Numbered from the stretch's first letter, positions 50,959-63,728 are shown. The stretch is 64,000 bases of DNA from Bacteroidota bacterium (GCA_004322215.1 SCSM01000002.1:1-64000); one strand, 5' to 3'. The notes: generated from the letters alone by a model not told the origin. Made by a program: numbers and translations.

Positions 50959-51015
50959 TTAACACAAGATTAACATTACATTTATTTTCCCTTCATAGTG
51001 CAACACTAATTTTGT
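50959..51015 (+). promoter_or_regulatory. Pho-box-like promoter upstream of the TonB receptor
   Basis: TTAACA at 50959-50964 and 50970-50975 (11-base period), a third half-site TTCATA at 50992-50997, shared TTTATTTTCCC between them, and TAATTTTG (-7) at 51007-51014. It aligns without gaps to 56176-56232. The TTAACA repeats spaced by 5 bases resemble PhoP-type Pho boxes of other phyla. The ATG is 39 bases after the -7 box. Confidence 0.72.
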
Positions 51016-51053
51016 ACCCGATATGATACTCAACAAATCTTAATAGGGTAAAA

Positions 51054-53993
51054 ATGGATTTAACAAATAAAAAAGTATTTCAGCAAAAAATATATTCGAT
51101 AAAAATATATTATATTTTATTAAACTTATTATTTGTTTACATTTCATTTGCTGAATCTACTCAATCAATTATTATTGGTAAAGTCGTTGACGGTGCAAGC
51201 GGTGATGTTATGAGGGGTGCCAGCGTTTATGTAGTAGGTACGAAATGGGGTGCCAGGACTGACGTTAAAGGAGAATTTAAAATCCACATACCTACTCCTG
51301 GAAGTTATACAATTAGATTTAGCTATATAGGTTATGAAGCAATAGAATTACAAAATATTGAAGTCATTTCAGCCAAAACAATAGATTTATCTTCAGTCGC
51401 AATTAATCCGCAATCAAATCTGACAGAAGAAATAACCGTACAAAGTGAAAGGATTATGAGCGGTGAAGGAGCAGTGCTTGCACAAAGGAAGAATGCGGAA
51501 CAAGTTAGTGACGGTATCAGTTCCGAAGAAATAAAGAGAACTGCTGACGGAGATGCAGGTCAATCTTTAAGAAGAATAACCGGAGTTACTCTTGTAGGAG
51601 GTAAATATATTTTCATAAGAGGTGTGAGTGAAAGATATAATAATACATTATTAAACGGTACATCTCTCGCTACAAGCGAACCTGATAAAAAAGCATTTGC
51701 CTTTGATATTTTTCCATCTGAGTTTCTTGAATATGCAAGCATTACCAAATCTTATACTCCAAATCTTCCGGGAAATTTCGCAGGTGGTCTTGTCCAGTTA
51801 AATACAATTGAATTTCCACAGGGCTTTAGTGTTAAACTTAGTACATCACAATCATTAAACGATAATATTACATTTAAGGATAATTCATTTGTGACTTTTA
51901 CTCCAGCTAATAATGATTTATTCGGATTCAATTCAAGAAATATTTCAATTCCTGATGGTTTGCCATCATCGCCGTCGGATATGAGTAAATTATTATATTC
52001 TGAAATTAAGTCACAAGATTTGAATACAAGATATGAATCTCAGCAAAAATGGGAACAATTAGGGAACGATTTTAATAATCAGAATTGGAAAAGGGATACT
52101 TTAACTGCACCATTAAACGGTACATATAAACTGACATTTACAGATATATTTGATTTGGGAGGTAATGATTTCGGTATTATTGCATCAGGATTGGTTAGCG
52201 GCGATTATATTAATAATCAAATTAGCCGGGGAGTACTGTTGTCTGATGGCGGATATAAATTTTATGGAGATGGTTTTCAATCAACTTATACGAAATCAAT
52301 AGGAGGAATACTCAACTTTGCTTATAAAATCGGAACAGACAATTCAATTAGTTTTAAGAACATATATAATAATTCTGTTGATAATGAATTAATAAATATA
52401 AATGGGAAAAAAGAAGAATCATATCTTAAGCAAATTAGCTATGATAATGTTCAAAAAACTTTAATTGCAACTCAATTAGCAGGTGAACATTTATTACCTA
52501 TATTACAAAATTCAACTTTAAAATGGAATTTCGGTTATTCAAATTCCATTAGAAATGAGCCGGATTTCAGACGTCTTAGATATTCGAGAAATGATACGAC
52601 TCAACCTTATAGGATTGATATTGGAGACAATCCCCAAGGAAATGGAACATTGGCAGGACGTTACTTTTCAAATTTAAATGAAGATGCTTATTCCGGTGGA
52701 TTGAACGTTCTACTGAATTTTCATAATGTAAAAATTGAAGCCGGAGGACTATATGAACAAAAGAAAAGGCAATTTTTAGTAAGGTCTTTCACGATAATAA
52801 AGAGTGAGTCAATAATTAAAAACTTTTATGACACAACTTATGAACAAGACCTTGAAAACTGGACTGATGATTATATATATGAGCTGTTAAATACCGAGTC
52901 TCCACCTGAACAACTATTCGAAAATAAAAATTTCAATTTACATGGCTTCGGAATTTCAGAAGATTCTCATGAAAGAGATTCATACAGAGCCGATGAAAAT
53001 TTATTTGCGGCTTATTCAATGGTTGATTTTAAATTTGAAGTTTTTAACCGTAAATTAAGAATTATTAGTGGATTTCGAATTGAAAACAATCATCAAAAAC
53101 TGCAAAGTTATTTCCCTACTATCAATGAATCGGATTCAGCAAACGGTTATGTCAATTATGTAAATCAGAATGTAGTTGATTTTCTTCCTTCAATAAATCT
53201 TATATATGAATTGAATAAAAACATGAATCTTCGTATGTCGGGATCTAAAACATTGACAAGGCCCACTTTAAGAGAATATGCCCCATTTACCTTTTATGAC
53301 TTTAAAACCCAGGTAAATGTTAAAGGCAATCTCAAACTTAGGAGGGCAATCATTCAGAATTATGATATTCGATGGGAGATGTTTCCAAATCCCGGTGAAG
53401 TATTTTCAATTGGTGGTTTTTATAAAATTTTTGATAATGCAATCGAAGAAACAATTCTTCCGAGTCCTGCCGAAATATTCAGGTCTTATGACAATGCCAA
53501 AGGTAAAGCATATAATTTTGGCGTTGAATTGGAAGCAAGAATGGGGCTTGATAATATTACAAATCTCCTCAATAATTTTTCAATCAATGCAAATTTGGCT
53601 TTGATAAAATCAATAATTACCGTTTCGCAAATTAATGAAAATGATACAAGAAGTATGTGTGGACAATCACCATATACATTTAACATGAACTTGTTTTTTA
53701 ATAAACCCGAATGGGGTACTACTATGAATTTAAGTTACAATACTTTCGGTAAAAGAATTGTTCAGGTTGCCGATGTAACTAAATACCAATTCTCTGACCC
53801 TCACATTTATGAGTCACCGAGAAATGTAATTGATTTTACTTATTCGCAGGTATTATGGGATATTTTTGAATTAAAATTTACTGCAAAAGACCTTTTGAAT
53901 GAAAAATTAATTTGGGAACAGGGCGGACATCAAGTATTAACTAATCATTATGGTAGAGACTATTCCCTCGGATTAAGTTATAAAATTCAATGA
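51054..53993 (+). CDS. TonB-dependent outer-membrane receptor (phosphate-regulon candidate)
   Basis: The 979-residue protein has a signal peptide (about 14-34), a carboxypeptidase-like regulatory domain (about 40-125: IIIGKVVDGASGDVMRGASV, GEFKIHIPTPGSYTIRFSYIGYEA), a TonB plug (about 145-260: GQSLRRITGVTLVGGKYIFI, NFAGGLVQLNT) and a large beta-barrel to the end. Such receptors import large or scarce nutrients using energy from TonB. The gene sits downstream of a promoter that matches the pst promoter and 106 bases before a T9SS beta-helix protein, ahead of the phosphate operon. Uptake of phosphorus compounds is therefore inferred. No SusD partner is present. Confidence 0.92.
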   Translation: MDLTNKKVFQQKIYSIKIYYILLNLLFVYISFAESTQSIIIGKVVDGASGDVMRGASVYVVGTKWGARTDVKGEFKIHIPTPGSYTIRFSYIGYEAIELQNIEVISAKTIDLSSVAINPQSNLTEEITVQSERIMSGEGAVLAQRKNAEQVSDGISSEEIKRTADGDAGQSLRRITGVTLVGGKYIFIRGVSERYNNTLLNGTSLATSEPDKKAFAFDIFPSEFLEYASITKSYTPNLPGNFAGGLVQLNTIEFPQGFSVKLSTSQSLNDNITFKDNSFVTFTPANNDLFGFNSRNISIPDGLPSSPSDMSKLLYSEIKSQDLNTRYESQQKWEQLGNDFNNQNWKRDTLTAPLNGTYKLTFTDIFDLGGNDFGIIASGLVSGDYINNQISRGVLLSDGGYKFYGDGFQSTYTKSIGGILNFAYKIGTDNSISFKNIYNNSVDNELININGKKEESYLKQISYDNVQKTLIATQLAGEHLLPILQNSTLKWNFGYSNSIRNEPDFRRLRYSRNDTTQPYRIDIGDNPQGNGTLAGRYFSNLNEDAYSGGLNVLLNFHNVKIEAGGLYEQKKRQFLVRSFTIIKSESIIKNFYDTTYEQDLENWTDDYIYELLNTESPPEQLFENKNFNLHGFGISEDSHERDSYRADENLFAAYSMVDFKFEVFNRKLRIISGFRIENNHQKLQSYFPTINESDSANGYVNYVNQNVVDFLPSINLIYELNKNMNLRMSGSKTLTRPTLREYAPFTFYDFKTQVNVKGNLKLRRAIIQNYDIRWEMFPNPGEVFSIGGFYKIFDNAIEETILPSPAEIFRSYDNAKGKAYNFGVELEARMGLDNITNLLNNFSINANLALIKSIITVSQINENDTRSMCGQSPYTFNMNLFFNKPEWGTTMNLSYNTFGKRIVQVADVTKYQFSDPHIYESPRNVIDFTYSQVLWDIFELKFTAKDLLNEKLIWEQGGHQVLTNHYGRDYSLGLSYKIQ

Positions 53994-54099
53994 GGATTTT
54001 GATTATAAGCTATATGAATTTAAACATTATGAATTAACAAAAAAAATGGAACTCTTTTCTACTACAAAATATTTATTAATTATTAACCGGAGGTTTATT

Positions 54100-56106
54100 A
54101 TGAAATTATTGAAGAACCTAAGTATCATTTTGTTCTCTTTAATTATATTCGGGCAAATTGCTCAAGCACAACTAACAATAAAAACACCGCAGCCAAATGA
54201 CCGTATCAGATATGGCAGAAGTGTTTTAGTAAGTTGGGACACAAGTAATACATATAAAAGAACATTTAAATTTACATGGAGTCAGTCTCAATCTGGTACA
54301 TGGAGTCCACTACCATTGCCAAAGGGTAAAACCACATTTAAGGACAGCACAAAGAATCAGGCAACAGTTGGCTCGGTTTTAATTACTTTTCCAAACCAGC
54401 AAACTCTTTGGTTAAAGGTTGAAGATGTAAACGACCCGACTTTCTCAGCAATCGTAGGTCCTTTAACAGTTGTTATATCAAATCCTTCACGTATAGATGA
54501 ATATATACAAGGTACGATAACAAGTAATAAAACTTTAACAGCAAATAAGATTTGGGGATTAAAAGGAGTGGTATTTGTAGCATCGGGAGCAACATTAACA
54601 ATTGAACCCGGAACAATAATAATGGGTGGAGTAGGAGAGACATCTGCATTGTGTATAAACCGCGGCGGTAAGATTATTGCAGACGGTACACCTTCAAAAC
54701 CGATAGTATTCACAAGCGGAGTCGTAGCAGGAAGCAGAGACCGTGGCGATTGGGGTGGCTTGCTGATTATGGGTAAAGCACCAACAAACCTTGTAGAAGC
54801 ACCGATTGAAGGCGGTATAGCAGACGATGCCAATACGAGAGTTAACGGATGGTTCGGAGGCAATGACCCGAATGACAATAGTGGTATATTGAGATATGTC
54901 AGAATTGAATTTGCAGGCATAGCAGAATCGCCTGACAACGAATTAAACGGATTAACACTTGGTGCAGTCGGTGCAGGAACAACAATTGACCATGTCCAGG
55001 TTTCATACTCGAATGATGACAGCTATGAATGGTTCGGAGGCACAGTCAATTGTAAACACCTGATTGCATACAATGCAATTGACGATGATTTCGATACAGA
55101 TAACGGATTCAGCGGAATTGTACAATTCGGATTAGAAAAAAGATTGACCGATGTTGCAGACCAATCTAACAGCGAAGCATTTGAGAGTGATAATGATGCA
55201 AGTGCATCTGAGAAACAACCTTTTACGAAAGCACTATTTTCAAATATAACAGTTATTGGTCCCGTTCAGGATACAAGCTGGCAAAAGGGTTCAGGTGTAA
55301 GTGGAACAAATACATTCCATTCAAAATTTCTTACGGCAGCACAGATCAGAAGAAATTCGAGAATGGGACTTGCTAATTCGGTAATACTGGGATGGCCCGC
55401 AGGTGTTGAATTAACAAATCAAAACTCAGTCAGAGCCGCAGAAAATGATTCAATCCTAGTCAGGTATAATGATTTTTACGGGATCAAGGGGAATAAATTC
55501 TTTTATTTCGGTGGAGGTACAAATCCTACAGCAGGAGTTGACCAAAACTGGTTAAGCAAACCGGAGTTCGGGAATAATTTCACAAATGGTTCAGGAATGG
55601 TAGATGGACTTGCACATATAATAAATGCATTTAATATGGCATCATTCAATCCATTGCCGACAGCTAATGCCCCATTTATGACAACAGCAAAATTCGATTA
55701 TGGAAGATTGACAGACCCATTTCTCGAAAAAGTGAGTTTCCGTGGTGCCTTTGGTACTGATAGATGGGATTTGGGCTGGACTGAATATGACCCGATTAAT
55801 AAAGAATATAAAGTTACTGCAGTAGATGAAATTCAAAATTTATATGAAAGTAAAATTCAGATTTATCCCCAGCCGGCAAATAAAATCTTAAACTTAAAAT
55901 TTAATTCTCTCAAGTCACAAAATCCAATTATAAAGATTTTGGATATTAACGGGAATGAAATAAAAGAATTTAATATTGAACAATCTTTTTATGGTAAATC
56001 AGATGAGTATCAAATAAATACTGAAGATATTCCAAGTGGAATTTATATTTTAGAGGTAGTTACAACAAATGAAATAACCAACCAAATGCTTATCATTATA
56101 AAATAA
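54100..56106 (+). CDS. Secreted right-handed beta-helix protein with T9SS sorting domain
   Basis: The 668-residue protein has a signal peptide (1-22), an Ig-like domain (about 23-130; ITIKTPQPNDRIRYGRS is similar in style), a parallel beta-helix (about 135-390: GATLTIEPGTIIMGG, GGKIIADGTPSKPIVFTS, WGGLLIMGKAP, LRYVRIEFAGI, IDHVQVSYSNDDSYEWFGG) and a C-terminal T9SS sorting domain (about 585-668: IQIYPQPANKILNLKF, SGIYILEV). The ATG at 54100 follows GGAGG. It follows the TonB receptor by 106 bases and ends in a 14-bp terminator, so the two form a transcription unit of the inferred Pho regulon. Surface capture of phosphate compounds is a guess. Confidence 0.85.
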   Translation: MKLLKNLSIILFSLIIFGQIAQAQLTIKTPQPNDRIRYGRSVLVSWDTSNTYKRTFKFTWSQSQSGTWSPLPLPKGKTTFKDSTKNQATVGSVLITFPNQQTLWLKVEDVNDPTFSAIVGPLTVVISNPSRIDEYIQGTITSNKTLTANKIWGLKGVVFVASGATLTIEPGTIIMGGVGETSALCINRGGKIIADGTPSKPIVFTSGVVAGSRDRGDWGGLLIMGKAPTNLVEAPIEGGIADDANTRVNGWFGGNDPNDNSGILRYVRIEFAGIAESPDNELNGLTLGAVGAGTTIDHVQVSYSNDDSYEWFGGTVNCKHLIAYNAIDDDFDTDNGFSGIVQFGLEKRLTDVADQSNSEAFESDNDASASEKQPFTKALFSNITVIGPVQDTSWQKGSGVSGTNTFHSKFLTAAQIRRNSRMGLANSVILGWPAGVELTNQNSVRAAENDSILVRYNDFYGIKGNKFFYFGGGTNPTAGVDQNWLSKPEFGNNFTNGSGMVDGLAHIINAFNMASFNPLPTANAPFMTTAKFDYGRLTDPFLEKVSFRGAFGTDRWDLGWTEYDPINKEYKVTAVDEIQNLYESKIQIYPQPANKILNLKFNSLKSQNPIIKILDINGNEIKEFNIEQSFYGKSDEYQINTEDIPSGIYILEVVTTNEITNQMLIIIK

Positions 56107-56116
56107 ACCTAACCCT

Positions 56117-56147
56117 AAAAGGTGTGCTAACCATTAGCACACCTTTT
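56117..56147 (+). terminator. Strong terminator after the beta-helix gene
   Basis: AAAAGGTGTGCTAA (56117-56130) pairs perfectly with TTAGCACACCTTTT (56134-56147) around CCA and is followed by ATTATTTTT. It separates the TonB unit from the porin-pst unit. Confidence 0.92.
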
Positions 56148-56175
56148 ATTATTTTTAATAAAGATTGATAAAAGA

Positions 56176-56232
56176 TTAACAGAATCTTAACAATACCTTT
56201 ATTTTTCCTTAACACTATTAACCTAATTTTGT
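56176..56232 (+). promoter_or_regulatory. Pho-box-like promoter of the porin-pst operon
   Basis: TTAACA at 56176-56181, 56187-56192 and 56209-56214; TTTATTTTTCC between the second and third; TAATTTTG (-7) at 56224-56231. The spacing of all elements equals that upstream of the TonB receptor (offsets 0, 11, 33, 48). The porin ATG is 51 bases after the -7 box. Confidence 0.78.
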
Positions 56233-56282: not shown

Positions 56283-57389
56283 ATGAGGCAGAGTTCTTTT
56301 AGAATCACAATTCTTAATTATATATTATCATTCTTACTAATACCATTTACATATCACACAATTCTCAGTGAAGATAAAATAGTCAAGGATGATTTTAAAT
56401 TTAATGTCTTAAGCTACTTATCATATCAGGCGGAATTATCGAACGGAGAATTAAAAAATAATCAATTTATGGAAAACAGGGCATATCTGACCGTTAAAAA
56501 GAATATTTTTGACTGGCTCGGATATAGAACAACTATTGATGCTTACCAGGACGTAAACGGCAATATACTAGTCAGATTTAAATACATTTATGCAAATTTT
56601 AAATTCAACGATTTTGGATTTTTCACAAAACCGAATATCGAATTTGGACAGGTCCACACCGCTTGGCTGGATTTCGAAGAGCATCTGAATTATTACCGTA
56701 TGCAGGGGACAATGTTCATGGAAAGGGCAGGTCTTTTCAATTCTGCAGATTTCGGAGTTACCGCTTCGACGCTTCTTGGCGGTGAAATGAATGACGAATA
56801 TAAGAAAACTGTTAATAAAGAATATGCTGGTAAATTTGGAAGTTTTGCTCTCGGTATTTATAATGGTGGAGGTTATAGTGCAATAGAAAGTAATAAAGGT
56901 AAAACAATTCAGACACGGTTAACAATACGTCCTGTTGCTGAAATTTTACCCGGATTGCAATTATCATATCATGGAATATTTGGACAAGGTAATATTGCGA
57001 AAGGTGATACAGTACCTGACTGGGTAATGAATGCGGGTATGTTATCATTCGAAAATCAATACTTTACATTTACAGGTCAATTCGAATCAGGAAAAGGTAA
57101 TTTTAAAGGTAATTTTATTGATTCTAAGAATGAAGCGATAAAAAATCAGGGATATTCTGTTTTTGCAGAAGGTAAACTTAGTGAAAATTTCAGAGTTATC
57201 GGAAGGTATGACCATTTCGACCCAAATACTGATAAAGATAAAGATGCTGATAATAGGGTAATTATTGGATTAGGTTATAATTTCGGTAATGATAATATTT
57301 TGTTGCTCGATTTTGATAAAAGGTTTTTTGAAGATAAAAGTAAAGCAGATGTCAATATAGCTAAATTGACAATGCAGGTAAATATTTGA
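56283..57389 (+). CDS. Phosphate-selective porin-like outer-membrane protein
   Basis: The 368-residue protein has a hydrophobic N-terminal segment (about 8-27) and a 16-strand-type barrel of alternating residues (FKFNVLSYLSYQAEL, GYRTTIDAYQD, YVFAEGKLSENFRVIGRYDHF, VIIGLGYNFGNDN). The style matches PhosO/P-like and related porins. It is the first gene of the pst operon, 44 bases before pstS, behind a Pho-box-like promoter. It likely lets phosphate cross the outer membrane. Confidence 0.75.
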   Translation: MRQSSFRITILNYILSFLLIPFTYHTILSEDKIVKDDFKFNVLSYLSYQAELSNGELKNNQFMENRAYLTVKKNIFDWLGYRTTIDAYQDVNGNILVRFKYIYANFKFNDFGFFTKPNIEFGQVHTAWLDFEEHLNYYRMQGTMFMERAGLFNSADFGVTASTLLGGEMNDEYKKTVNKEYAGKFGSFALGIYNGGGYSAIESNKGKTIQTRLTIRPVAEILPGLQLSYHGIFGQGNIAKGDTVPDWVMNAGMLSFENQYFTFTGQFESGKGNFKGNFIDSKNEAIKNQGYSVFAEGKLSENFRVIGRYDHFDPNTDKDKDADNRVIIGLGYNFGNDNILLLDFDKRFFEDKSKADVNIAKLTMQVNI

Positions 57390-57433: not shown

Positions 57434-58504
57434 ATGAAGAAAATAAGTTTAATAATAATAGCTTTAATGATAGTATTGACTTTGCAAACTAATAGTCAAA
57501 ATATTAAAGCATTGAAGGAAAAAGCAATGGGAACATCCGAAATTCTCGGGGCTGGTGCAACTTTCCCGTTCCCTTTCTATTCGAAAGTATTCGATGAATA
57601 TAATAAAATCAAAGGAGTAAAAGTAAACTACCAGGCAATCGGTTCAGGAGGCGGAATCAAACAGTTGACAAGCAAAACTGTTGATTTCGGAGCGACTGAC
57701 GCTTTTATGGATGGAAAAGAACTTAACGAAGCCGGTAAGCCGATTGTGCATATTCCTACCTGTCTTGGAGCCGTAGTTGTAACATACAATATACCCGGTA
57801 ATCCGAAATTGAAATTAACAGGTGATGTTGTCTCTGCCATTTTTTTAGGACAAATAACAAGCTGGACTGATAAAAGAATAACTTCACTAAATAAAGGTGT
57901 AAAACTACCAAATCAAAAAATTGTCGTTATTCACCGTTCTGATGGCAGCGGTACTACATTCATTTTCAGCGATTATTTAACTAAAGTCTCAAAGGAATGG
58001 GAATCAAAGGTTGGTAGAGGAAAATCACTCGATTGGCCCGTTGGCTTGGGTGGAAAAGGTAACCAGGGTGTAGCGGGATTGGTGCAGCAAACTCCAGGTT
58101 CTATAGGATATGTTGAGCTTGTTTATTCTAAGAGCAATAATATGCCTGCTGCGTTAATCAAAAATTCATCGGGAAATTATATAGAGCCAACAATGAATTC
58201 GGTCAGCTTATCTGCTAATATTGATTTACCGACAGACACACGTGTTTCATTGACAAACAGTAATTCCGCACAAGGTTACCCGATGAGCAGTTTTACCTGG
58301 TTAATTTTATATAAGGAATTGAATTATAATAACAGGGATTATAAACACGCAAAGGTACTTGTTGACTTGATTTGGTGGTTGGTTCATAATGGGGAGAAAT
58401 ATGCACAGCCACTTAATTATTCTCCATTACCGCAACAGGCACTGAAAAAAGCCGAGACCATATTAAAATCAGTTACATATAACGGGAAGCCGATATTAAA
58501 GTGA
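57434..58504 (+). CDS. pstS: Phosphate ABC transporter substrate-binding protein
   Basis: The 356-residue periplasmic binding protein has a signal peptide (1-21) and the phosphate-binding loops GAGATFPFPFYSKVF (about 37-51), IGSGGGIKQLTSKTVDFGATDA (71-92) and HRSDGSGTTFIFSDY (about 159-173). It delivers phosphate to PstCAB. It overlaps pstC by 4 bases (GTGA). Confidence 0.97.
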   Translation: MKKISLIIIALMIVLTLQTNSQNIKALKEKAMGTSEILGAGATFPFPFYSKVFDEYNKIKGVKVNYQAIGSGGGIKQLTSKTVDFGATDAFMDGKELNEAGKPIVHIPTCLGAVVVTYNIPGNPKLKLTGDVVSAIFLGQITSWTDKRITSLNKGVKLPNQKIVVIHRSDGSGTTFIFSDYLTKVSKEWESKVGRGKSLDWPVGLGGKGNQGVAGLVQQTPGSIGYVELVYSKSNNMPAALIKNSSGNYIEPTMNSVSLSANIDLPTDTRVSLTNSNSAQGYPMSSFTWLILYKELNYNNRDYKHAKVLVDLIWWLVHNGEKYAQPLNYSPLPQQALKKAETILKSVTYNGKPILK

Positions 58505-59404: not shown

Positions 59405-60310
59405 ATGAATAATGAACTGACACAAAATATTGACATAAATACAGATAAAATTTCTTTCTTAATAAAAGAGAAAAAAATTAAATCCAGAATTATTAAGGAT
59501 AAAATTTTCAAGTATATCACAATTGCAGGTGCTTTATTTGTTTCGTTAATATTAGCATATATACTTTTTTATGTCGCAAAGCAGGGGATAAGTTCAATAA
59601 ATTGGAATTTTATTATTGAACTGCCTAAACCTCCAGGTGAGTTCGGAGGCGGAGTATCCAATGCAATAGTAGGTACACTAATAATGATTGCACTATCTGT
59701 AATAATTGCAGTTCCCTTATCAATTGCAATCGGAGTATATTTATCAGAGGACAGGAAAACAAAATTATCTTACTGGGTGAGAACCGGATTGGAAATATTG
59801 CAGGGTATGCCTTCGATTTCAATTGGTATTGTGGTTTATGTTTGGGTTGTGCTTCAGATGGGCAGTTTCAGTGCTTTGTCCGGTGGAATAGCACTTGCTA
59901 TTATGATGCTTCCGGTGGTTGCAAAATCAACGGAAGAAACCTTGAAAATGGTCCCTTATTCCCTTAAGGAAGCATCATTGGCTCTTGGTGTTCCTTATTA
60001 TAAGACCATACTAAAAGTTGTTGTTCCTTCCGGATTAAGTGGAATTCTGACAGGGATTCTTATTGCGGTTGCAAGAGTAGCCGGCGAGACAGCTCCTTTA
60101 TTATTTACATCATTTGGCAATCCGTTTATGAATGTGAATATGATGAAGCCGATGAATTCACTGCCACTGGTTATATTCAACTATGCAAGCAGTCCATATA
60201 AAGAATGGCACTCGCTTGCCTGGGGAGCTTCTTTTTTATTAATGGTTATGATTTTAATTTTAAATATTACAGCAAAAATTATTTCGAGAAAATGGAAAAT
60301 CAAGTTTTAA
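59405..60310 (+). CDS. pstA: Phosphate ABC transporter permease PstA
   Basis: The 301-residue permease has a long charged N-terminus (1-38), about six helices and the loop [22 protein letters not shown] (about 188-209) followed by [17 protein letters not shown]. Its last 19 bases overlap the pstB start. Confidence 0.96.
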
Positions 60311-61964: not shown

Positions 61965-63728
61965 ATGAGTAAAATATTTCTAAAAATATTCATTGGATTT
62001 CTAATTCTGATTGTTGCTTTAACAACGCTATTCATAGTCTTTTCTTATTATTCTGTCAGAGAACAATATCTCGAAACATTAACTAATCATCTTAAAAATT
62101 TGAATTACTTGCTTAAAAGTAAAATTGTGCAAGACGTTGAAAATAAGAATTATTCGGTGTTGGATTATTACATAAAAAAACTGGGAAAAAATATTGAAGC
62201 AAGAATAACAGTAATTCTTCCTGACGGATTAGTAATTGCAGATTCAGAGAGAGACCCTTCGAAAATGGAAAACCATGGTACTAGAACAGAGATTGTACAA
62301 GCGATAAACAATGGATTTGGTTCATCACTCCGATACAGTCACACAATTCACGAAGATATGCTCTATGTTGCATTACCAATAATGAAAGAAGGAAAAATCA
62401 TTGCTGTTTCAAGAGTCAGTATGCACACCAAAGACATTGACAAATTATACTCACAGCTGAGAAACAGTATTGTAACGATTGCTATTTTGTTGACACTGCT
62501 TTCCCTGATAGGAATTTTATTATTCTCACTTAGCTTTACCAAACCAATTAAATCATTAGTAGAATCCTCAAAAAGAATTTCATCCGGAGATTTTGATACC
62601 AAACTATTTCTTAAACGAAATGATGAGTTAAAAGTTCTTGCTGACAGTTTCAATGAAATGACAACAAAACTAAGTGCATCATTTAAAGAAATAAAAGAAC
62701 AAAAGGAAGAATTAAGCCAGTTAATTGCCGGTTTGCAGGAAGGGCTGATTGTAATTGACAAACTCGGAAAAATTACCTTATCAAATAAAAGTTTTGAAAG
62801 AATTATAGGGAAAGCGAATATTCTCGGTGTTGATTATTGGACTGTTCTGCAGGATACTAAAGTTGCAAAACTTATTAAACAATTAAAATCGCAATTTAGA
62901 AGCATCACAAAAGAAATTAGAGTTGATGACGGATATTTCCTATGCAGTGGCAGCTACATCGAGCCCAAAGAAGAAATCATTTTGATTTTTTATAATATTA
63001 CAGACAGGAAAAATCTCGAACTGGTGAAAAAAGATTTCATTTCAAATGCATCACACGAGTTAAGAACTCCTTTGACATCAATAAAAGGTTACGTTGAGAC
63101 TTTGCAAACGGAAATTGACGAAAAGCATAAACCATTTCTCGATATTATTGAAAAAAATACTGATAGAATAATAAGAATAGTTGAGGATTTGACAATCCTA
63201 TCCGAATTGGAAGAAAAGAAGCAGGAACCTGAATTTCAGGAGGTTAATCTAATTGATATTTCAAAAAATATCATTAAAATATTCGAGCAATCAGCTTCAG
63301 CAAAAGGTTTGATTCTGCAATTCAACTACGACGAAAATCTTCCTCCGATTAAAGCAGACTCATTCAAAATTGAACAGTTATTAATAAACCTGATAGACAA
63401 TGCAATAAAATATACAAATGAAGGTACAATTCAATTAAATATCACAAATGAAGTAGAGGAAGGCTCACAACCTTCCCCAAAAGATAATGTTAATAATAAT
63501 ATAATTATTGAAATCAGCGACACAGGTATCGGAATACCCAAAGAACATCAATCCAGAATATTCGAAAGATTCTATACCGTAGATAAATCCCGTTCAAAAA
63601 AGCTTGGTGGCACCGGCTTGGGCTTATCTATTGTTAAGCACATAGTACAATTGCACAATGGGGAAATCAAGGTAGAGAGTGAGTTGGGCAAGGGGACAAG
63701 GTTTATTGTTTTATTGCCAGTTTCTTAG
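61965..63728 (+). CDS. phoR: PhoR-type sensor histidine kinase
   Basis: The 587-residue kinase has TM1 (about 5-27), a periplasmic domain of about 135 residues (ARITVILPDGLVIADSERDP: Cache-like), TM2 (about 168-188), HAMP (189-240), a PAS domain (about 260-350), H-box SNASHELRTPLTSIKGYVET (His near 364), N-box LINLIDNAIKYTNEG (about 470-484) and G-boxes DTGIGIPKEHQ and GGTGLGLSIVKH. It follows phoU by 14 bases. No response regulator is adjacent. Its stop overlaps by 4 bases with the convergent mutS2 stop. Confidence 0.93.
   Translation: MSKIFLKIFIGFLILIVALTTLFIVFSYYSVREQYLETLTNHLKNLNYLLKSKIVQDVENKNYSVLDYYIKKLGKNIEARITVILPDGLVIADSERDPSKMENHGTRTEIVQAINNGFGSSLRYSHTIHEDMLYVALPIMKEGKIIAVSRVSMHTKDIDKLYSQLRNSIVTIAILLTLLSLIGILLFSLSFTKPIKSLVESSKRISSGDFDTKLFLKRNDELKVLADSFNEMTTKLSASFKEIKEQKEELSQLIAGLQEGLIVIDKLGKITLSNKSFERIIGKANILGVDYWTVLQDTKVAKLIKQLKSQFRSITKEIRVDDGYFLCSGSYIEPKEEIILIFYNITDRKNLELVKKDFISNASHELRTPLTSIKGYVETLQTEIDEKHKPFLDIIEKNTDRIIRIVEDLTILSELEEKKQEPEFQEVNLIDISKNIIKIFEQSASAKGLILQFNYDENLPPIKADSFKIEQLLINLIDNAIKYTNEGTIQLNITNEVEEGSQPSPKDNVNNNIIIEISDTGIGIPKEHQSRIFERFYTVDKSRSKKLGGTGLGLSIVKHIVQLHNGEIKVESELGKGTRFIVLLPVS

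What the first reader, a model, noticed from the sequence alone, without database searches (positions are those of the whole stretch)
50959..56232. Two gap-free matching promoters define a Pho box on Bacteroidetes-type promoters
The 57-base regions before the TonB receptor and before the porin-pst operon align with no gaps: TTAACA at 0 and 11, TTTATTTTYCC, a third half-site at 33 (TTCATA / TTAACA) and TAATTTTG at 48. TTAACA-N5-TTAACA is like the PhoP site of Bacillus, while the -7 box is Bacteroidetes-type. The half-sites take the place of a -33 box, as expected for an activator. I know no described Pho box of this exact form in this group.
Basis: partly seen in the sequence, partly recalled or inferred. 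Interest (0 to 1): 0.7.

Follow-up and report, generated by a model that had tools for sequence, protein, structure and literature searches.

The report
Phosphate-starvation switch shared across Bacteroidota
Two genes for scavenging phosphate in an uncultured Ignavibacteria-like bacterium carry the same DNA switch, four repeats 11 bases apart just ahead of the promoter, and the same switch stands before dozens of phosphate and phosphorus-free-lipid genes in relatives, so it is almost certainly the landing site of their phosphate regulator.

Summary
The promoters at 50959 (TonB receptor) and 56176 (porin-pst-phoU-phoR) align without gaps, 43/57 identical; the best of 1000 shuffled pairs gave 36. 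The array has four half-sites with an 11-base period (offsets 0, 11, 22, 33) plus TAnnTTTG at 48. A profile built only from other genomes' porin-pst promoters ranks exactly these two sites first in the 4.2-Mb genome (E 5.5e-9 and 1.5e-7; next 0.057). The array is kept before 19 of 19 family TonB-receptor orthologues chosen by protein homology. A second profile gave 75 hits at E<1e-3 in 122 genomes; a column-permuted control gave 1. Genes below held-out hits are a textbook Pho regulon: PstS, OprP-type porins, phytase-like proteins, phosphatases, a PhoB-PhoR operon, ornithine-lipid synthase OlsF and, elsewhere in the phylum, BtaA. A PhoB orthologue (C20:229682) tracks the box within the family (Fisher p 0.0015). 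Conclusion: an authentic PhoB-type Pho box replacing the -33 element of a Bacteroidota-type promoter. Its mechanism is known; the exact architecture, its breadth and the predicted regulon are the new part. Binding and induction are untested.

The parts
50959..50964 (+). Pho half-site 1 (TTAACA) of the TonB-receptor promoter
50970..50975 (+). Pho half-site 2 (TTAACA)
50981..50986 (+).
50992..50997 (+). Pho half-site 4 (TTCATA)
51007..51014 (+). Bacteroidota-type -7 box TAATTTTG, 9 bases after half-site 4
51054..53993 (+). TonB-dependent receptor (CarbopepD_reg_2, plug, barrel)
   Evidence: Pfam/NCBIfam; orthologues over the family
54046..56106 (+). T9SS-sorted surface protein (Por_Secre_tail) with an Ig-like domain and a predicted right-handed beta-helix; follows the receptor in nearly all orthologous loci
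56176..56181 (+). Pho half-site 1 (TTAACA) of the porin-pst promoter
56187..56192 (+). Pho half-site 2 (TTAACA)
56198..56203 (+). Pho half-site 3 (TTTATT)
56209..56214 (+). Pho half-site 4 (TTAACA)
56224..56231 (+). -7 box TAATTTTG
56283..57389 (+). outer-membrane porin, first gene of the pst operon; 16 predicted strands, general-porin fold; phosphate selectivity not shown, no Pfam match
57434..58504 (+). pstS
   Evidence: TIGR00975
58501..59379 (+). pstC
   Evidence: TIGR02138
59405..60310 (+). pstA
   Evidence: TIGR00974
60205..61050 (+). pstB (the listed ORF starts inside pstA; the PstB match begins near 60307)
   Evidence: TIGR00972
61252..61950 (+). phoU
   Evidence: TIGR02135
61965..63728 (+). 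phoR-type sensor kinase (sCache-like, HAMP, PAS, HisKA, HATPase)

Best explanation
Both promoters carry an authentic Pho box. Under phosphate limitation PhoR (window 61965-63728, released from Pst/PhoU inhibition) phosphorylates the PhoB orthologue encoded apart at G000 C20:229682-230347. PhoB~P binds head-to-tail as two dimers on four 11-base half-sites (TTAACW-N5-TTAACW-N5-TTWAYW-N5-TTMAYA). The last half-site ends 9 bases before a Bacteroidota-type -7 box (TAnnTTTG), in the space where the -33 element would lie, so PhoB takes over from a missing -33 box and recruits the primary sigma factor. This turns on the porin-pst-phoU-phoR operon and the TonB receptor with its T9SS-exported beta-helix partner. 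Shown here: the sequence array, its genome-wide specificity, its conservation, its placement before phosphate genes, and co-occurrence with the PhoB orthologue. Inferred: PhoB binding, dimer stoichiometry, sigma contact and low-phosphate induction.
For: Held-out genome scan: the profile from other genomes' porin-pst promoters puts exactly these two sites on top. 19 of 19 TonB-receptor upstream regions chosen by protein homology have the half-site array (p<=0.018 each against shuffles, 16 at the floor of 0.002), and 15 of 19 have TAnnTTTG at +9. 75 hits at E<1e-3 in 122 genomes against 1 for a column-permuted model of equal information. Genes after held-out hits: PstS, Porin_O_P and homologues, phytase-like, purple acid phosphatase, metallophosphoesterases, OlsF (655.9 bits, cut-off 620), BtaA, glycosyltransferases, PhoB-PhoR, TonB receptors. 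The PhoB orthologue is in 46 of 53 family genomes at >=54% identity and at <=45% outside the family; PhoB and box co-occur 41/5/2/5, Fisher p 0.0015. In G053 the box precedes the phoB orthologue (59% identical), followed by phoR. Three same-genus relatives carry two tandem copies of the promoter before porin-pst. In F. johnsoniae, Pi depletion induces PhoB, TonB transporters, a beta-helix-type lipoprotein beside one of them in the phoBR operon, a phytase, PlcP, a glycosyltransferase and a T9SS protein (PMC8115612).
Against: No expression or binding data exist for this organism. The own genome shows only two strong boxes, and none before its phoB. Both PhoB scores are below the NCBIfam equivalog cut-offs (232/296 and 219/270). 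Five family genomes with PhoB lack a strong box, and two less complete ones have a box without detected PhoB. Site selection with the second profile includes the -7 box, so its fixed offset there is partly circular; only one search tests it freely. Outside the class, hits are weaker and mixed. TAnnTTTG by itself is not enriched before genes in this window (9 sense, 8 antisense).
Confidence: 0.93

Rival explanations
1. The repeats are the site of another OmpR-family regulator (for example an ArcA- or WalR/YycF-like one), not of PhoB; phosphate genes would be targets only by association.
For: OmpR-family regulators share direct repeats of about 11 bases, and the Riemerella PhoP motif was noted as ArcA-like (PMC9603813). 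The own genome encodes two more full-length PhoB-like regulators, C14:21825 and C2:92367.
Against: Downstream genes are specifically phosphate and P-free-lipid genes. The C20 regulator has the best PhoB score, and its orthologue in G053 is itself behind the box in an operon with phoR. C14 scores best to YycF and sits with its own kinase; C2 scores best to a heavy-metal regulator family.
Confidence: 0.05
2. Chance similarity of two AT-rich promoters, or a recent duplication of one promoter.
For: TTAACA and TAATTTTG are AT-rich, and bare TTAACA-N5-TTAACA occurs 5 times in the genome.
Against: Shuffles never approach the identity. The array is kept before both genes in other genera, where spacers and flanks have diverged. 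The permuted control fails.
Confidence: 0.01
3. The array marks an alternative (ECF-type) sigma-factor promoter rather than an activator site.
For: Bacteroidota carry many ECF sigma factors (PMC7366714), and the -33 TTTG is absent here.
Against: Four in-phase 11-base repeats reaching about 60 bases upstream are not a sigma-factor element; the -7 box is the primary-sigma consensus (PMC7366714); a PhoB orthologue co-occurs.
Confidence: 0.01

Closest known systems
E. coli PhoB Pho box (CTGTCAT-N4 direct repeats)
   Same: Head-to-tail 11-base repeats, tandem boxes at strong promoters, activator site replacing the upstream promoter element about 10 bases before the -10/-7 box (repeat unit: PMC4415409; promoter position from general knowledge).
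   Different: Half-site letters TTAACA instead of CTGTCAT; Bacteroidota -7 box TAnnTTTG instead of the sigma70 -10.
Bacillus subtilis PhoP box (TTAACA-like repeats, N about 5)
   Same: Practically the same half-site and 11-base period, usually four repeats for activation (from memory).
   Different: SigA promoter; low-GC Gram-positive; spacing to the -10 region more variable (from memory).
Riemerella anatipestifer PhoP (Bacteroidota) DAP-seq motif
   Same: Most conserved letters TTTAACA; targets include a TonB-dependent receptor and the phoPR operon itself (PMC9603813).
   Different: In the passages read, not described as a four-half-site array at a fixed distance from TAnnTTTG; 583 peaks and a claimed virulence role.
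Flavobacterium johnsoniae Pho regulon (proteome/transcriptome)
   Same: Low-phosphate induction of a TonB transporter with a neighbouring beta-helix-type lipoprotein, T9SS proteins, a phytase, PlcP and a glycosyltransferase (PMC8115612).
   Different: No binding site was reported in the passages read; there phoB and phoR are together, here phoR is in the pst operon and phoB lies apart.

Membership tests
Pho box (PhoB/PhoP operator) | Direct repeats with an 11-base period | tested here: met
   Four half-sites at 0, 11, 22, 33 in both promoters and across relatives
Pho box (PhoB/PhoP operator) | Placed before pst and other phosphate-acquisition genes, enriched genome-wide | tested here: met
   Own genome top two hits only; held-out hits in 122 and 395 genomes before phosphate genes; permuted control 1 hit at E<1e-3 against 75
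Pho box (PhoB/PhoP operator) | Cognate PhoB and PhoR encoded in the genome | tested here: met
   PhoR at window 61965-63728; PhoB orthologue C20:229682, best to TIGR02154 but below cut-off; co-occurrence with the box
Pho box (PhoB/PhoP operator) | Bound by phosphorylated PhoB | not testable with these tools
   Needs footprinting or a gel-shift assay
Pho box (PhoB/PhoP operator) | Genes induced by phosphate limitation | not testable with these tools
   Needs RNA-seq; similar gene types are induced in F. johnsoniae (PMC8115612)
Bacteroidota primary-sigma promoter | -7 box TAnnTTTG at a fixed place | tested here: met
   TAATTTTG in both; A49, T52, T53 and G55 invariant in 23 promoters; offset +9 in 15 of 19
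Bacteroidota primary-sigma promoter | TTTG near -33 | tested here: not met
   No TTG 17-27 bases upstream of the -7 box in either promoter and no conserved G there in 23 promoters; [quoted passage not shown] johnsoniae either (PMC7366714)
OprP/OprO phosphate porin (PF07396) | Match to the Pfam family | tested here: not met
   Window porin has no Pfam hit even at E 10; its model is a 16-strand barrel like general porins. Porins behind the box in some other genomes do match PF07396

The most novel reading that the evidence does not exclude
The four-half-site array with a fixed 9-base gap to TAnnTTTG is the ancestral Pho promoter of the Bacteroidota/Ignavibacteriota lineage. It defines a regulon that includes an uncharacterised TonB receptor/T9SS beta-helix surface pair, a new kind of phosphate (probably organic-phosphate) capture system, and phosphorus-free membrane lipids (OlsF ornithine lipids, BtaA betaine lipids).
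Probability: 0.5. Interest if true: 0.6.

Novelty: new variant of a known kind. Interest (0 to 1): 0.48.

Why it matters
It gives a searchable, statistically strong Pho-box definition for a group with almost no cultured genetics, turns many unannotated outer-membrane genes into predicted phosphate-starvation genes, and predicts phosphorus-free lipid remodelling in Ignavibacteria-like bacteria. It also offers a clean system for asking how an OmpR-family activator substitutes for the -33 element of the divergent Bacteroidota primary sigma factor.

Tried and rejected
Chance similarity: rejected by shuffles, held-out scan and permuted control. Bare TTAACA-N5-TTAACA as the defining motif: rejected; three of five genome sites lack the rest of the array. 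More weak sites in the own genome: none scores near the two (next E 0.017), and no box lies before phoB. Weak profile-1 hits in the genus (E>0.005) are short partial matches, several of them inside genes. TAnnTTTG enrichment within the window alone: inconclusive. Beta-helix partner: Foldseek gave no match at E<=0.001, but VIA-align put pectin-lyase-type beta-helices on top (Z 18.9 to AlgE4 A-module, 282 residues, rmsd 4.5); a shared fold shows no function. One letter of the permuted control alignment was mistyped, which does not affect its use as a control. Papers: no Pho box for Ignavibacteria found in the library; subscription journals and RegPrecise were not searchable.

Full report
Observation. 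The two promoters read as stated. From 50959: TTAACA-N5-TTAACA-N5-TTTATT-N5-TTCATA-N9-TAATTTTG. From 56176: TTAACA-N5-TTAACA-N5-TTTATT-N5-TTAACA-N9-TAATTTTG. They are identical at 43 of 57 positions without a gap; 1000 dinucleotide-shuffled pairs of the same two intergenic regions never exceeded 36. The long pattern with up to three mismatches occurs twice in the 4.2-Mb genome, at these two places, and its backward control never. The short TTAACA-N5-TTAACA occurs five times, so the specificity lies in the whole array.

Correction to the anatomy. Relatives show that there are four half-sites with an 11-base period, not three. In G092 the porin-pst promoter reads TTAACA-caatc-TTAACA-attct-TTAACA-ttccc-TTCATA-caatgatgt-TAATTTTG, so the window's TTTATT at offset 22 is half-site 3. 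The column profile of 23 promoters has its information in four blocks at 0, 11, 22 and 33 and in nAATTTTG at 48-55. No TTTG is found near -33, and half-sites 3 and 4 occupy that space. In the three other genomes of the genus the whole promoter is duplicated in tandem, 68 bases apart, before porin-pst.

What lies downstream. 51054-53993 is a TonB receptor; 54046-56106 a T9SS-sorted protein; 56283 a porin, then pstS, pstC, pstA, pstB, phoU and a PhoR-type kinase. The T9SS protein follows the receptor in nearly all orthologous loci. Its model is beta-rich, and VIA-align places right-handed beta-helices on top (Z 18.9 to the AlgE4 A-module over 282 residues, rmsd 4.5), although Foldseek alone gave no match at E<=0.001. 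The window porin has no Pfam match, but its low-confidence model (mean pLDDT 61) is a 16-strand barrel like general porins.

Held-out test in the own genome. A sequence-only profile (R1) was built from seven porin-pst promoter copies of four other genomes. The same model finds the TonB-receptor promoter in the three sister genomes (6.7e-8, 1.6e-7, 1.7e-4), though none was in training.

Test free of motif selection. TonB-receptor orthologues were chosen by protein homology. Scored with the half-site part of the porin-pst profile only, 19 of 19 upstream regions contain a significant array (16 at the floor p 0.002, the rest <=0.018), and the best TAnnTTTG lies at +9, among 35 possible offsets, in 15 of 19 (10 uniquely).

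Regulon test. A second profile (R2, 23 promoters) gave 102 hits at E<=0.01 and 75 at E<1e-3 in 122 genomes of the order, about two thirds of the latter not training sites. A column-permuted model of the same information gave 14 and 1. Genes starting mostly 20-60 bases after held-out hits are: PstS (several families), OprP-type porins (Pfam PF07396 or homologous to such), phytase-like proteins, a purple acid phosphatase, metallophosphoesterases, choice-of-anchor I, sensor kinases, the PhoB-PhoR operon, bifunctional ornithine-lipid synthase OlsF (five genomes; the one scanned scores 655.9 against a cut-off of 620), glycosyltransferases and TonB receptors. In 395 genomes of the phylum the form TTAACA x4 - N9 - TAnnTTTG recurs before TonB receptors, porins, PstS and a GT21/HpnI-like glycosyltransferase in other families of the class, and in weaker form before TonB receptors, PstS, BtaA (DUF3419), a PhoU-like DUF47 protein and a PAP2 protein outside it. 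In one genome the box stands directly before a homologue of the window's T9SS protein (G373).

The regulator. The best PhoB of the own genome is C20:229682-230347 (232 bits to TIGR02154 and 219 to the Bacteroidota PhoB model, both below cut-off). It is 59% identical to the regulator of G053 that has a Pho box in front and a PhoR-like kinase behind. Orthologues at >=54% identity are in 46 of 53 genomes of the family, while other families of the order have only <=45% matches. Box and PhoB co-occur within the family (41 both, 5 PhoB only, 2 box only, 5 neither; Fisher p 0.0015), with genome incompleteness as a partial confounder. Outside the family only one genome of the order has a hit at E<=0.01.

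Literature. Pho boxes are 11-base direct repeats whose letters vary between bacteria (PMC4415409). Bacteroidota primary-sigma promoters have TAnnTTTG at -7 and TTTG near -33 in B. [quoted passage not shown] johnsoniae (PMC7366714). PhoB is needed for pstC expression in B. fragilis (PMC3547664). Riemerella PhoP binds a motif with conserved TTTAACA, a TonB receptor among its targets (PMC9603813). F. johnsoniae under Pi depletion induces a TonB transporter with a neighbouring beta-helix-type lipoprotein, T9SS proteins, a phytase, PlcP and a glycosyltransferase, but not its OprP (PMC8115612). No Pho box for Ignavibacteria was found in the searchable library.

Mechanism and limits. The most likely working is classical: PhoR to PhoB~P, two head-to-tail dimers on four half-sites, the last one 9 bases before the -7 box, replacing the missing -33 contact. 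Array, specificity, conservation, gene content and co-occurrence are shown. Binding, stoichiometry, sigma contact and induction are inferred. The finding is a well-supported new variant of a known kind, not a new mechanism.

Noticed in passing
L009 1288-1421, L010 2696-2829, L011 1252-1385: The porin-pst promoter is duplicated in tandem (two full four-half-site promoters 68 bases apart) in three same-genus genomes; only one copy is recognisable in the window.
   Followed up: partly
window 54046-56106: T9SS-exported Ig-plus-beta-helix protein conserved directly downstream of the TonB receptor across the family; resembles in kind the Pi-induced beta-helix-type lipoproteins of F. johnsoniae.
   Followed up: partly
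L156, L158, L160, L161, L168 (OlsF); L132 (BtaA); L123 (GT21, HpnI-like): Genes for phosphorus-free lipids stand behind the same box, predicting membrane lipid remodelling under phosphate limitation in this group.
   Followed up: partly
window 61965-63728 and G000 C20:229682-230347: phoR is in the pst operon while phoB is encoded apart on another contig, without a Pho box of its own.
   Followed up: yes
L046, about 150 bases upstream of the receptor: The TonB-receptor promoter of G087 seems to carry a longer array of half-sites, including TTCACA repeats, than four.
   Followed up: no
L213, L215, L218, L224: A small unannotated gene (131-133 aa) with a TTAACA array in front recurs in several genomes of one other family of the phylum (f35).
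   Followed up: no
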